Part shown: positions 7,191 through 28,598 of the stretch, in pieces
Numbering within the stretch: position 1 is the first letter of the stretch
Layout of the letters: each line of letters opens with the position of its first letter
Assembly (NCBI GenBank): GCA_039619475.1
Contig: CM077115.1
Location: forward strand, 552,814,826 to 552,878,825
Direction: 5' to 3'
DNA length: 64,000 nt
Origin: Icerya purchasi
Lineage: Eukaryota > Arthropoda > Insecta > Hemiptera > Monophlebidae
Translations under genes and position numbers: made by a program
Notes under the pieces: model-generated
Databases searched by the model: none
What the model saw: the letters and a program-made list of their open reading frames with translations, nothing else
Told to the model about the DNA's origin: nothing

Positions 7191-7403
7191 AGTAGAGGTA
7201 AAAGGACAGTTCACGGCCAAAGGATGCCGCCAGCACCCATAGCACCCAGGAGTCATTCCCAGAGGCGAAATTTCACCTTAATGCCTTGATTAATTCAGAA
7301 AATTAACCTAATTAATAGTATCAGAGGTCAAAAACTAACCCGAATACCCCGATTATTGCAGAAAATTCACCCAATTAAGGGTCCCAAGCACCCTTATGTC
7401 CCT

Positions 7404-7546
7404 AATTAATTATGCAATCAATTTAATCGTTGAATTATTAATTATGCAATCAATTTAATCGTTGAATTATTAATTACGCAATCAATTTAATCGTTGAATT
7501 ATTAAATTATGCATTCAATTTAATCGTAGAATTATTAATTATGTGT
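7404..7546 (+). repeat. subterminal 32-bp tandem repeat, left tip
   Basis: About four units of a 32-33-bp repeat with core GCAATCAATTTAATCGTTGA, about 215 bp inside the element tip. The fourth unit is diverged (GCATTCAATTTAATCGTAGA). A mirrored array is at the other tip. Subterminal repeats can be transposase or replication-protein binding sites; that role is inferred. Confidence 0.8.
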
Positions 7547-8299
7547 GAATATAAGCTCAAAGGATGTTGCCACCGTTGATTAAGACCTTCCAGAACCGTT
7601 TCCGGAGCGTCTCGGACCGCGGAACCGCATTCCATTTGATTGTCGATCCCTTAATTAATACACACACATGCAAATGTACGTGTATATACGTCTGCACACA
7701 CATGTAAAAATCACCATCATCATCACCATCGCGGTAAATTCGTACGCGTGCCATCGCAAGTGACCTTGTACCTGTCAATCAATTGGTCGATGCATGCCTT
7801 TGCTTGTACGTAAATTACCGTTATTCGGTAGCAACTAGTTTTGGAGGATTACACACACAATGATATATATACGGTTACGAGCGTCTGTACACATATGTAA
7901 AATTAGTTATTATCATTATTGAATTTGTTGTTATCAATATTATCAGTGGTCAGTCTGCAGGAATCGCGGTAAAATACAGGTTTTCGCCGTTCCGGTATTT
8001 CTAGGAATCGCGAAGATTTTCGTTCGGTCAGTTGCGTAAAACTTTTCTTTGTCCGATACATTATGTACGGGGGGGTAAGTCTCTATCTCACACATCGCAA
8101 AAGTGAAAATGCTTCTCTCATAACGCTACATGCAAATGCTAACGCAACCGTTGAAACAGGATCTTAACGTTCTTATACTTTCTATTTCAGTCTATGCCTT
8201 TCATAGAACCACGCCTTACATGTACACACTAACACAAAAACACACTCATACTCAAAAGTCCTTGACTACTTTATCCATATACACATATGTAATCAAGTT

Positions 8300-8420
8300 C
8301 TTTCGATGGAACAACATTTTTTTCTGACGTAACATTACCACCGCCACACCCGATTTAGAGATAGTCAACGAGGTAGATCGTTGAATGGATTTATTCAATC
8401 GCTCAATATTAATTTCTCAT
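8300..8420 (+). promoter_or_regulatory. upstream module of gene A, left arm
   Basis: Contains TTTCTGACGTAACATT (TGACGTAA at 8325-8332) and GAT-rich sequence that aligns with blocks upstream of gene B (10741-10830) and gene C (right arm, 19495-19565). TGACGTAA resembles a CRE/bZIP site. A TATA-like TTTATAAAA lies at 8485-8493, about 20 bp before the gene A start. Promoter function is inferred from position and conservation. The antisense strand is also open, so part may be coding. Confidence 0.45.
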
Positions 8421-8513
8421 CAAACGCATATACATTCTCCGAGCAGTGTTCATCACGCGTTTTTAAGTTTTTAATTTTTTCGTCTTTATAAAAATTATTT
8501 CATCATAATCATC

Positions 8514-9341
8514 ATGAATACCGATACTGTTACCGCGAAAAATTCGAAACCTGTAAATACGGCAGAATTTATTCAACATTTTTTCACATATGATAATGAC
8601 GATGTTGCGCAGAGTGGTTTTCCAGATACACATATGCCACCCCCACCACCACCACCAACAATATCACAAAACCCAGAAAATTCACAAGAGGCAGAAAATT
8701 CATCACATACTCAATTCTCGCAATATTTACATTCGCCACCGTTAACGCAAATTCCGCTACCACCACCATCTGAAGATGTTAGTCCGTCAAAGGTCGAACT
8801 TCCGAGAGAAATAATCAATCGACGTGCTGTAATCTACGTAAAAGATATGAACGATACGGAAAATAAAAATAGTTTTCTGTTTGCCATTCTGGCGAAGTTT
8901 ACGAAAAATCCGTTCTCGATGTGGCAATATAATTTATTACAGAATGTGTACGATTTCAACTTCATACGATTACCGGTACGTTCATTAGCAGATATTGAAA
9001 CCTTCGAACGAACGAATGGTGTATCTATTAACTTATACAAATTAATAGAAACCGATGGTGCCGATGCTGAAACGTGCAAGTATAAAATTAAAGTCGTTTA
9101 TGCATTCCGAAAAAACCATAGTATTTTAAATCATCGTAATCATACAAATATGTTGTACTGGGGTTCGAATGGTAATTTCCAGTTTGCATGGATTAAAAAA
9201 TTTAGTCAACTCATACGAATTCAATCGCCGAATGTTAAATTCTCATGCTGGGGATGTCTGGATTCAATGAAAGACGAATTCGAACATAACAACAATCATC
9301 GTTGCGACGCGATCAGTTGGCGTAACATGCATTTTATGTAA
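8514..9341 (+). CDS. gene A: polymerase-B N-terminal-domain-like protein (275 aa), left arm
   Basis: Intronless. Residues 1-30 share an AEFIQ-x-x-F motif with gene B. Residues 41-95 are a proline/serine-rich linker with a run of seven prolines. Residues about 105-264 resemble the region before the exonuclease domain in Polinton/adintovirus polymerase B: NSFLFAILAKF (119-129), FNFIRLPV (149-156), IETFERTNGVSINLYKL (161-177), and a Cys/His cluster C245-x2-C248...H258, H262, C264. No polymerase or exonuclease catalytic motif is present, so it is a stand-alone accessory domain, perhaps DNA-binding or protein-binding. AATAAA follows within 20 bp of the stop. An identical copy lies in the right arm. 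The domain match is by pattern recognition and the function is unknown. Confidence 0.75.
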   Translation: MNTDTVTAKNSKPVNTAEFIQHFFTYDNDDVAQSGFPDTHMPPPPPPPTISQNPENSQEAENSSHTQFSQYLHSPPLTQIPLPPPSEDVSPSKVELPREIINRRAVIYVKDMNDTENKNSFLFAILAKFTKNPFSMWQYNLLQNVYDFNFIRLPVRSLADIETFERTNGVSINLYKLIETDGADAETCKYKIKVVYAFRKNHSILNHRNHTNMLYWGSNGNFQFAWIKKFSQLIRIQSPNVKFSCWGCLDSMKDEFEHNNNHRCDAISWRNMHFM

Positions 9342-9625
9342 ACTATTAAAAAAATAAAGAAGTACATTTTTTTCTTTTTCACATATTTTTTTATTTTTCA
9401 AAAAACTTTTACAATGTTTTCTTTCGAAATATATAACGCATGTAAACTTTATTACAATATAATATATAATAATAAATAGTTTCATATATTTACATTTCTT
9501 ATTTCATAAACTTAAAATTATTTTAAAATTTTCGATTTTACTATAGTTGATAATATGTTTCCAACTCCAGTCTGTATTAAAGCCTCTTGATCCTTACGTT
9601 GAATAGTTGAGTCAATATCATGTAT

Positions 9626-26447: not shown

Positions 26448-27275
26448 TTACATAAAATGCATGTTACGCCAACTGATCGCGTCGCAACGATGATTGTTGT
26501 TATGTTCGAATTCGTCTTTCATTGAATCCAGACATCCCCAGCATGAGAATTTAACATTCGGCGATTGAATTCGTATGAGTTGACTAAATTTTTTAATCCA
26601 TGCAAACTGGAAATTACCATTCGAACCCCAGTACAACATATTTGTATGATTACGATGATTTAAAATACTATGGTTTTTTCGGAATGCATAAACGACTTTA
26701 ATTTTATACTTGCACGTTTCAGCATCGGCACCATCGGTTTCTATTAATTTGTATAAGTTAATAGATACACCATTCGTTCGTTCGAAGGTTTCAATATCTG
26801 CTAATGAACGTACCGGTAATCGTATGAAGTTGAAATCGTACACATTCTGTAATAAATTATATTGCCACATCGAGAACGGATTTTTCGTAAACTTCGCCAG
26901 AATGGCAAACAGAAAACTATTTTTATTTTCCGTATCGTTCATATCTTTTACGTAGATTACAGCACGTCGATTGATTATTTCTCTCGGAAGTTCGACCTTT
27001 GACGGACTAACATCTTCAGATGGTGGTGGTAGCGGAATTTGCGTTAACGGTGGCGAATGTAAATATTGCGAGAATTGAGTATGTGATGAATTTTCTGCCT
27101 CTTGTGAATTTTCTGGGTTTTGTGATATTGTTGGTGGTGGTGGTGGGGGTGGCATATGTGTATCTGGAAAACCACTCTGCGCAACATCGTCATTATCATA
27201 TGTGAAAAAATGTTGAATAAATTCTGCCGTATTTACAGGTTTCGAATTTTTCGCGGTAACAGTATCGGTATTCAT
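26448..27275 (-). CDS. gene A: polymerase-B N-terminal-domain-like protein (275 aa), right arm
   Basis: Amino-acid identical to the left-arm copy at 8514-9341, transcribed toward the loop. It is the outermost gene of the arm. The tip-proximal 1.3 kb beyond it holds the subterminal repeats and no further gene. See the left-arm entry for the domain description. Confidence 0.75.
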   Translation of the reverse strand: MNTDTVTAKNSKPVNTAEFIQHFFTYDNDDVAQSGFPDTHMPPPPPPPTISQNPENSQEAENSSHTQFSQYLHSPPLTQIPLPPPSEDVSPSKVELPREIINRRAVIYVKDMNDTENKNSFLFAILAKFTKNPFSMWQYNLLQNVYDFNFIRLPVRSLADIETFERTNGVSINLYKLIETDGADAETCKYKIKVVYAFRKNHSILNHRNHTNMLYWGSNGNFQFAWIKKFSQLIRIQSPNVKFSCWGCLDSMKDEFEHNNNHRCDAISWRNMHFM

Positions 27276-27368
27276 GATGATTATGATGAAATAATTTTTA
27301 TAAAGACGAAAAAATTAAAAACTTAAAAACGCGTGATGAACACTGCTCGGAGAATGTATATGCGTTTG

Positions 27369-27489
27369 ATGAGAAATTAATATTGAGCGATTGAATAAAT
27401 CCATTCAACGATCTACCTCGTTGACTATCTCTAAATCGGGTGTGGCGGTGGTAATGTTACGTCAGAAAAAAATGTTGTTCCATCGAAAG
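27369..27489 (-). promoter_or_regulatory. upstream module of gene A, right arm
   Basis: Mirror of 8300-8420, with TGACGTAA on the reverse strand at 27457-27464. Confidence 0.4.
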
Positions 27490-28242
27490 AACTTGATTAC
27501 ATATGTGTATATGGATAAAGTAGTCAAGGACTTTTGAGTATGAGTGTGTTTTTGTGTTAGTGTGTACATGTAAGGCGTGGTTCTATGAAAGGCATAGACT
27601 GAAATAGAAAGTATAAGAACGTTAAGATCCTGTTTCAACGGTTGCGTTAGCATTTGCATGTAGCGTTATGAGAGAAGCATTTTCACTTTTGCGATGTGTG
27701 AGATAGAGACTTACCCCCCCGTACATAATGTATCGGACAAAGAAAAGTTTTACGCAACTGACCGAACGAAAATCTTCGCGATTCCTAGAAATACCGGAAC
27801 GGCGAAAACCTGTATTTTACCGCGATTCCTGCAGACTGACCACTGATAATATTGATAACAACAAATTCAATAATGATAATAACTAATTTTACATATGTGT
27901 ACAGACGCTCGTAACCGTATATATATCATTGTGTGTGTAATCCTCCAAAACTAGTTGCTACCGAATAACGGTAATTTACGTACAAGCAAAGGCATGCATC
28001 GACCAATTGATTGACAGGTACAAGGTCACTTGCGATGGCACGCGTACGAATTTACCGCGATGGTGATGATGATGGTGATTTTTACATGTGTGTGCAGACG
28101 TATATACACGTACATTTGCATGTGTGTGTATTAATTAAGGGATCGACAATCAAATGGAATGCGGTTCCGCGGTCCGAGACGCTCCGGAAACGGTTCTGGA
28201 AGGTCTTAATCAACGGTGGCAACATCCTTTGAGCTTATATTC

Positions 28243-28385
28243 ACACATAATTAATAATTCTACGATTAAATTGAATGCATAATTTAATAATTCAACGATT
28301 AAATTGATTGCGTAATTAATAATTCAACGATTAAATTGATTGCATAATTAATAATTCAACGATTAAATTGATTGCATAATTAATT
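28243..28385 (-). repeat. subterminal 32-bp tandem repeat, right tip
   Basis: Exact mirror of the array at 7404-7546, with the same unit count and the same diverged unit. Confidence 0.8.
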
Positions 28386-28598
28386 AGGGACATAAGGGTG
28401 CTTGGGACCCTTAATTGGGTGAATTTTCTGCAATAATCGGGGTATTCGGGTTAGTTTTTGACCTCTGATACTATTAATTAGGTTAATTTTCTGAATTAAT
28501 CAAGGCATTAAGGTGAAATTTCGCCTCTGGGAATGACTCCTGGGTGCTATGGGTGCTGGCGGCATCCTTTGGCCGTGAACTGTCCTTTTACCTCTACT

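What the first reader, a model, noticed from the sequence alone, without database searches (positions are those of the whole stretch)
7191..28598. A Polinton-derived element turned into a 21-kb palindrome with every gene in two inverted copies
Known Polintons have terminal inverted repeats of hundreds of bases; here the inverted repeat is about 10 kb per arm and covers all intact genes. Single-unit behaviour is supported by matching tips, unrelated DNA outside them, and interruption of one TA microsatellite. This could be a new class of foldback, non-autonomous Polinton that keeps two copies of accessory genes and both replication ends while dropping polymerase, integrase and capsid.
Basis: partly seen in the sequence, partly recalled or inferred. 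Interest (0 to 1): 0.92.

Follow-up and report, generated by a model that had tools for sequence, protein, structure and literature searches.

The report
Mirror-image Polinton family from snap-back copying
In an insect genome whose size matches the cottony cushion scale's, a virus-like jumping DNA called a Polinton also exists in a mirror-image form, with its genes present twice, whose centre is found at 34 or more separate sites; it likely arose when a copying DNA strand folded back on itself, and it is predicted to be moved by the complete Polintons in the same genome.

Summary
The palindrome is in the assembly as described, and it is not a one-off. The window element (7191-28598, 21,408 bp) has inverted arms 7191-17869 and 18532-28598 and a 662-bp loop; all five arm substitutions lie within 600 bp of the loop. 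The genome (Icerya purchasi by total size and scaffold N50) carries the same loop in 40 of 40 scored places, at 34 sites. [quoted passage not shown] their arms are 99.0-100% identical within an element but 92-98.5% identical to the window arm. The same genome holds a 20,395-bp Polinton with 662-bp TIRs, integrase, ATPase, capsid and a polymerase-like ORF; 2.1 kb at one end is 96% identical to the palindrome's arm. A second palindrome type carries integrase and capsid regions in both arms, and its junction shows a 9-bp fold-back microhomology, the signature of snap-back copying. Verdict: a new transposing class of foldback Polinton. Snap-back origin, mobilisation in trans and arm homogenisation are inferred. 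Genes A, B and C are mostly intact with dN/dS below 1; C is modelled as a Maelstrom/DEDDh-like fold and B is its paralogue. No reads were examined.

The parts
7191..28598 (.). whole palindromic Polinton-derived element, 21,408 bp
   Evidence: tips read
7185..7190 (.). possible 6-bp target-site duplication (ATATAT), left; inside a TA microsatellite, so uninformative
   Evidence: other copies give perfect 6-bp duplications in 10 of 10
28599..28604 (.). possible 6-bp target-site duplication (ATATAT), right; uninformative as above
7191..17869 (+). left arm
18532..28598 (-). right arm, inverted copy of the left arm
17870..18531 (.). 662-bp loop between the arms, shared by the family
   Evidence: with 30 bp of each arm it matches full length in 40 of 40 scored candidates of 1,243, 98-100%
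8514..9341 (+). gene A, 275 aa, left copy; related to the N-terminal part of the polymerase-like ORF of the full-length Polinton
   Evidence: E 2e-10; intact in 11 of 11 left arms
26448..27275 (-). gene A, right copy
11054..12073 (+). gene B, 339 aa, left copy; paralogue of C
   Evidence: intact in 10 of 11 left arms
23716..24735 (-). gene B, right copy
15873..16703 (-). gene C, 276 aa, left copy; Maelstrom/DEDDh-like fold by prediction
   Evidence: intact in 11 of 11 left arms
19697..20527 (+). gene C, right copy
17293..17812 (-). gene D remnant, left, with frameshift and stop
   Evidence: open pieces only were searched
18504..19108 (+). gene D remnant, right (inner end approximate), same lesions
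   Evidence: 51% to D of the full-length Polinton
17870..18023 (-). fragment in the loop related to residues 321-364 of the polymerase-like ORF
   Evidence: E 5e-9
18347..18519 (+). loop stretch 73.6% identical to the 5' part of gene D of the full-length Polinton
14810..15419 (+). 610 nt of extra tandem repeat in the left arm only

Best explanation
The window holds one copy of a dispersed family of ~20-kb palindromic Polinton derivatives, likely born when a replicating Polinton strand folded back on itself mid-genome, and predicted to be copied and inserted by the proteins of the complete Polintons in the same genome. Shown: two ~10-kb inverted arms around a shared loop; that loop at 34 or more sites; 6-bp target-site duplications at 10 of 10 other insertions examined; arms near-identical within an element while four subfamilies differ by 2-4%; a 20.4-kb Polinton with 662-bp TIRs, integrase, capsid and a polymerase-like ORF in the same genome. 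Inferred: (1) a nascent 3' end annealed to a short inverted repeat in its own strand and copied back to the tip, giving a molecule with the same tip at both ends and about parental length; this is read from the junction of the second palindrome type, because no close parent of the window type was found to read its own junction against. (2) Having two like tips, the product is replicated and integrated in trans. (3) The displaced strand can fold into a ~10-kb hairpin, so the arms are re-copied or repaired from each other and stay alike. (4) A, B and C are kept by selection; B and C may bind nucleic acid and act on host small-RNA defence or on replication.
For: Inverted pairs: 14 including the window (40 of 1,535 candidates scored); both ends of 10 of the 13 others fetched, and all 10 palindromic: 8 with continuous arms of 9.4-9.8 kb at 99.8-100%, one with 6.5 kb at 99.0%, one rearranged (4.6 and 4.4 kb at 99.9-100%). 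Perfect 6-bp duplications in 10 of 10. Loop in 40 of 40 scored candidates, 34 sites after counting six close pairs once. Arms differ at 0-4 of up to 2,416 sites within each of 11 elements, against 1.9-3.7% between subfamilies. Full-length Polinton C2:172231807-172252201, TIR 662 bp, duplication TTCGTA, Pfam integrase, ATPase, phospholipase-like and capsid hits above cut-off; one end shares 2,095 bp at 96% with the palindrome arm. Its integrase in 40 of 40 scored candidates of 591 at 99-100%. Second palindrome type: five inverted integrase pairs; one read at both ends, arms 99.96% over 9,288 bp, 97.2% collinear with one half of the Polinton, duplication GTTGAA, 18,989 bp; 9-bp fold-back microhomology with a 130-nt spacer; 401 bp around that junction 100% identical at a second site. 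Eight of the ten window-type elements are 19.4-21.6 kb, the Polinton 20.4 kb.
Against: No reads were examined, so all structure is the assembly's. The window type's own junction cannot be read as a snap-back: no close parent was found, its C and D are only 55% and 51% identical to those of the Polinton, and its gene order differs. D has the same lesions in both arms and in nine of ten other elements (one over part of the stretch), which also fits a palindrome formed in a decayed chromosomal copy. Length near the parent rests on two types only. The polymerase-like ORF matched no polymerase in Pfam, NCBIfam, PHROGs or PDB. One locus has a 100-N gap and two loops, and another a tandem rearrangement, so the assembler had trouble in places. 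Arm mismatches show no uniform pattern across elements. B is broken in one left arm and in the copies in L029 and L031.
Confidence: 0.68

Rival explanations
1. Assembly artefact: ordinary Polintons whose second half was replaced by an inverted copy of the first through fold-back reads or assembler error. A false fold could keep the real target-site duplication.
For: One element holds a 100-N gap and two loops, one is tandemly rearranged, and no reads were examined. Target-site duplications alone do not exclude this.
Against: The same loop with both junctions at 34 sites; the second type's junction identical at two sites; four subfamilies each with its own arm sequence in both arms; arms alike from the first base of the tip on both sides in most pairs; HiFi assembly at average depth 31 (PMC11183206, passages).
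Confidence: 0.06
2. The palindrome was made by host repair (break-induced replication or gene conversion from one TIR into the other) in a chromosomal Polinton copy, and the product was mobilised later.
For: D carries the same lesions in both arms and in nine of ten other elements, so it was broken before or soon after the palindrome spread; the tips lie exactly at the arm ends with unrelated flanks.
Against: The second type's junction is a short inverted-repeat fold-back inside the element, with most other genes of that half open. Host repair can also use such microhomology, so this does not exclude the rival.
Confidence: 0.22
3. No special homogenisation: the arms are alike only because each insertion is young.
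For: Seven of the eleven elements compared differ by at most 0.12% from one another in the three gene segments, a recent burst.
Against: Loop and junction are shared between subfamilies, so the palindrome appears older than they are, yet the window arms show no substitution in the outer ~10 kb although the window differs by 2.65% or more from every other element compared.
Confidence: 0.15

Closest known systems
Polintons/Mavericks (PMC8097293 and PMC6431247, passages seen)
   Same: 6-bp target-site duplications, AGTAG-type tips, total length in the reported 12.7-24.6 kb, homologous genes, a full-length Polinton in the same genome.
   Different: Reported TIRs of intact vertebrate Mavericks are 46-1,447 bp; here the inverted repeat is ~10 kb and takes up nearly the whole element. 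The window copy lacks recognisable integrase, capsid and full polymerase.
Palindromic snap-back or defective genomes of protein-primed linear replicons, such as adenovirus left-left genomes and yeast killer-plasmid derivatives (recalled, from no call)
   Same: Same end on both sides, about parental length, fold-back junction.
   Different: Those are known to me as transient or cytoplasmic forms; here they are inserted in chromosomes with target-site duplications at many sites.
Teratorn (PMC6431247, passage seen)
   Same: A large virus-derived mobile element with long inverted repeats.
   Different: Herpesvirus plus piggyBac origin, 41-182 kb, with a large unique region.
Maelstrom (MAEL) domain (PMC2628886, PMC4408791, passages seen), for genes B and C
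   Same: DEDDh-type fold by prediction; E-H-H-C-H-C residues; first D kept 15 residues before the E; incomplete catalytic set.
   Different: No match to any Maelstrom sequence model; encoded by a mobile element; nearest structural relatives in BFVD are a protein without a name in the tables, an adintovirus protein and ichnovirus proteins.

Membership tests
Polinton/Maverick | 6-bp target-site duplication | tested here: met
   10 of 10 other palindromic elements; uninformative at the window copy itself
Polinton/Maverick | terminal inverted repeats with AG-rich end motif | tested here: met
   tips begin AGTAG in window and copies, one tip AGTAC; motifs in PMC8097293
Polinton/Maverick | retroviral-type integrase | tested here: not met
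   none in the window ORFs scanned; present in the full-length Polinton. So filed as a non-autonomous derivative, not as a complete Polinton
[quoted passage not shown]
   only fragments: gene A and a loop peptide related to parts of a polymerase-like ORF; that ORF itself matched no polymerase model, its naming rests on recalled motifs and place
Polinton/Maverick | capsid, ATPase and protease genes | tested here: not met
   none recognised in the window ORFs scanned; found in L030, the protease below Pfam's cut-off
Polinton/Maverick | gene homology to a Polinton | tested here: met
   2,095 bp at 96%; C 55%, D 51%
Maelstrom (gene C) | RNase H/DEDDh-type MAEL fold | tested here: met
Maelstrom (gene C) | E-H-H-C-H-C residues | tested here: met
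   E25, H38, H66, C149, H152, C160 in C; B has five of the six
Maelstrom (gene C) | match to a Maelstrom sequence model | tested here: not met
   no such hit for C at E up to 1 in Pfam, none for B at E up to 10, none by profile in PDB sequences
Maelstrom (gene C) | role in piRNA silencing | not testable with these tools
   no expression or binding data

The most novel reading that the evidence does not exclude
Snap-back Polintons are a self-perpetuating class of replicon: half-genome palindromes, arising repeatedly, whose two arms are re-made from one strand in each cycle (as LTR pairs are), so that arm identity dates each insertion. They live as inherited satellites of complete Polintons, carry paired Maelstrom-like genes against the host's small-RNA defence, and any read-through transcript is a 10-kb hairpin RNA.
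Probability: 0.33. Interest if true: 0.92.

Novelty: new variant of a known kind. Interest (0 to 1): 0.86.

Why it matters
How animal Polintons replicate is mostly inferred from their genes. Heritable snap-back genomes with fold-back microhomology would be a genomic record of linear replication, readable without catching a virion. They would also be a new type of non-autonomous giant transposon: palindromes of ~20 kb, usually thought unstable, that persist and spread in chromosomes, with a built-in clock in the arm differences, a possible source of long hairpin RNA, and a mobile Maelstrom-like protein that may touch piRNA defence.

Tried and rejected
Relatives of B, C, D and of the proteins P0002 and P0004, and a tip pattern, were sought in viral contigs: no relative, no match. 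A protein search with A found nothing at E 0.001; with C it gave 4 proteins, one named from the parasitoid wasp Microctonus, which first made me suspect a wasp; genome size later pointed to the scale insect. The AF2 model of A was useless (mean pLDDT 37.9), so no fold search was run on it. A profile search of PDB sequences with B, C and relatives gave four weak unrelated hits. A weak Chromo shadow hit for C (E 0.006, below its cut-off) and weak hits for the D pieces were set aside as chance. I first read the window's mismatches as a general gradient towards the loop; one other element shows it (12 of 13 arm mismatches in the inner 1.5 kb), but others have mismatches near the tip or mid-arm or almost none, so I dropped a general rule. 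Reading the window palindrome as a fresh viral defective genome was weakened by the lesions of gene D.

Selection. Of 13 inverted pairs other than the window, both ends of 10 were fetched. Left out: C2:443757596-443786754 (one end matches over 995 bp only and a single integrase match lies inside, so probably an ordinary Polinton), C1:153216725-153258786 (one end over 995 bp) and C1:247217886-247251560 (only its middle fetched, L031, tandemly rearranged). One of six one-sided matches was followed up (L030, L032, L033). Of five integrase inverted pairs, one was read at both ends and one more at the junction; two of the five overlap on C2 at 466.2 Mb and are a rearranged locus. Mismatch positions that lie in flanks, loops or the two pairs with interrupted arms were not used. 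Gene intactness and dN/dS used left arms only.
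Full report
Observation. The window holds two inverted arms, 7191-17869 and 18532-28598, around a 662-bp loop at 17870-18531. Their alignment shows five substitutions, all within 600 bp of the loop, two 1-nt homopolymer differences and one 610-nt tandem-repeat difference. Genes A, B and C are open in both arms; the longest ATG ORF in 300 Markov simulations of the arm was 157 aa. Gene D carries the same frameshift and stop in both arms; its relative in L030 is open over 319 aa. Over 160 bp around the frameshift, eight of the ten other elements align in full without gaps, one over part of the stretch without gaps, and one gave no match in the fetched piece, so D was probably broken in the family's ancestor.

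Where it is. The genome has 1,103,370,081 bases in 41 contigs, the two large ones 601,656,059 and 497,304,701. A paper on Icerya purchasi gives 1,103.38 Mb, two chromosomes, scaffold N50 601.66 Mb, HiFi reads assembled with hifiasm, average depth 31 (PMC11183206, passages). The species is inferred from this match; no tool named it.

A family, not a single object. The first 1.8 kb of the arm gave 43 matches (40 of 1,535 candidates scored), among them 14 inverted pairs including the window. Both ends of 10 of the 13 other pairs were fetched in 10-kb pieces, and all ten are palindromic: eight have continuous arms of 9.4-9.8 kb at 99.8-100%, one 6.5 kb at 99.0%, one rearranged arms (4.6 and 4.4 kb at 99.9-100%). 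Against the window arm, segments longer than 600 bp are 92.3-98.5% identical. [quoted passage not shown] in one of them the flanks are also inverted copies of each other for the 200 bp fetched. The loop with 30 bp of each arm is present full length in 40 of 40 scored candidates (of 1,243) at 98-100%; counting six close same-orientation pairs once leaves 34 sites. Lengths are 19.4-21.6 kb in eight of the ten, 25.4 kb in one, and 35.7 kb in one that holds a 100-N gap and two loops.

Arms evolve in step. In up to 2,416 sites from three gene segments, arms differ at 0-4 sites within each of the eleven elements, while four subfamilies differ by 1.9-3.7%. Loop sequence is shared between subfamilies as far as the fetched pieces reach it (no piece reached it in one of the two members of one subfamily), so the palindrome appears older than the subfamilies, and something has kept both arms alike since. 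Seven of the eleven elements differ by at most 0.12%: a recent burst.

The source. Six one-sided matches each lie beside an integrase match. One was followed to a full-length Polinton at C2:172231807-172252201, 20,395 bp, with a 662-bp TIR at 94.6% identity and the duplication TTCGTA. It carries integrase (rve, E 5e-12), Pox_A32-type ATPase, phospholipase-like and double-jelly-roll capsid hits above cut-off, an adenovirus-type protease hit below cut-off, and a 1,225-aa polymerase-like ORF that matched no polymerase model. At one end 2,095 bp are 96% identical to the palindrome arm. Gene A is related to residues 149-306 of the polymerase-like ORF (E 2e-10), the loop peptide to residues 321-364 (E 5e-9), and D (51% over 89 aa) and C (55% over 146 aa) to genes of this element. 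Its integrase occurs in 40 of 40 scored candidates (of 591) at 99-100%.

A second palindrome type. Among those 40 integrase matches are five inverted pairs 12.1-12.9 kb apart. One, C1:471569516-471588504 (18,989 bp), was read at both ends: arms 99.96% identical over 9,288 bp, collinear at 97.2% with one half of the full-length Polinton, from its gene-A end through the integrase to the capsid region (nine ORFs of 120 aa or more), duplication GTTGAA. At its centre one strand reads the Polinton inward to position 253 of L030 and then outward from position 392, with nine shared bases and 130 nt between. This is what a 3' end annealing to a 9-bp inverted repeat and copying back would leave. The same stretch is 100% identical over 401 bp at a second site, so this type has spread too. 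How many copies share it is unknown, because that search did not complete.

How it works. Best reading: during linear, tip-primed replication the growing strand snaps back and copies itself to the tip, giving a molecule with the same tip at both ends. Those of about parental length persist, keep two like tips, and are inserted in trans by the abundant complete Polintons. The hairpin form lets the arms be copied or repaired from each other. Anatomy, dispersal and target duplications are shown; formation, mobilisation in trans and homogenisation are inferred. Tip-primed (protein-primed) replication of Polintons is taken from the literature (PMC6431247, passage), and the comparison with palindromic adenovirus and yeast-plasmid genomes is recalled.

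The genes. A is intact in 11 of 11, B in 10 of 11 and C in 11 of 11 left arms; pairwise dN/dS is 0.03-0.24, 0.33-0.78 (one pair without differences) and 0.23-0.39, so the genes look kept, B least so: its copies in L029, next to the assembly gap, and in L031 are broken. B and C are paralogues (28%). The model of C (mean pLDDT 73.7, first 170 residues mostly above 75) is a DEDDh-type fold. It carries the E-H-H-C-H-C set given for Maelstrom in PMC2628886 and a first D 15 residues before the E, as D122 and E137 in Bombyx (PMC4408791). Structural relatives in BFVD include a Drosophila-associated adintovirus 2 protein and ichnovirus proteins. No Maelstrom sequence model matched, so B and C are called Maelstrom/DEDDh-like, not members.

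In print. Searches for Polinton with palindrome words (44 papers, 20 listed), Maverick and Polinton with inverted duplication (2), three of Polinton, nonautonomous, inverted repeats, palindromic (65, 20 listed), adintovirus with Maelstrom (none) and Maelstrom with Polinton (2) showed no title or abstract start that describes palindromic Polintons or Polinton-encoded Maelstrom-like proteins. Only listings were seen for this, and only an open-licence library was searched.

Noticed in passing
G000 C1 and C2, e.g. C2:172248302-172249291: The Polinton integrase has at least 40 matches at 99-100% identity (40 of 591 candidates scored): a recent burst of complete or partly complete Polintons in this genome.
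   Followed up: partly
15873-16703 and 11054-12073, with mirror copies 19697-20527 and 23716-24735: Genes C and B have a Maelstrom/DEDDh-like fold (C by model, B as its paralogue) with zinc-site residues kept; relatives by fold occur in an adintovirus and ichnoviruses.
   Followed up: partly
L021 and L022 (C1:518836381-518857806): This copy's flanks are inverted copies of each other for all 200 bp fetched outside the tips: a larger inverted duplication, an insertion into a palindrome, or an assembly error.
   Followed up: no
L029:7225-7324, in C1:162841338-162877038: A 100-N gap inside one element, which also shows two loops 15.4 kb apart; five other close same-orientation loop pairs exist.
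   Followed up: no
G000:C2:466225458-466253670: Four integrase copies in alternating orientation within 28 kb: tandem or nested palindromes, or an assembly error.
   Followed up: no
8250-8415 and 10695-10855: Sequences upstream of genes A and B are 75% identical, and A and B share a short N-terminal stretch: perhaps a reused promoter and start.
   Followed up: no
L031 (C1:247228000-247236000): A tandemly repeated ~4.4-kb piece of the arm inside a longer copy.
   Followed up: no
48171-50093: A GC-rich 640-aa open frame with many insect relatives; the seven best-scoring that cover 40% or more of it are 27-38% identical. Probably a host exon.
   Followed up: partly
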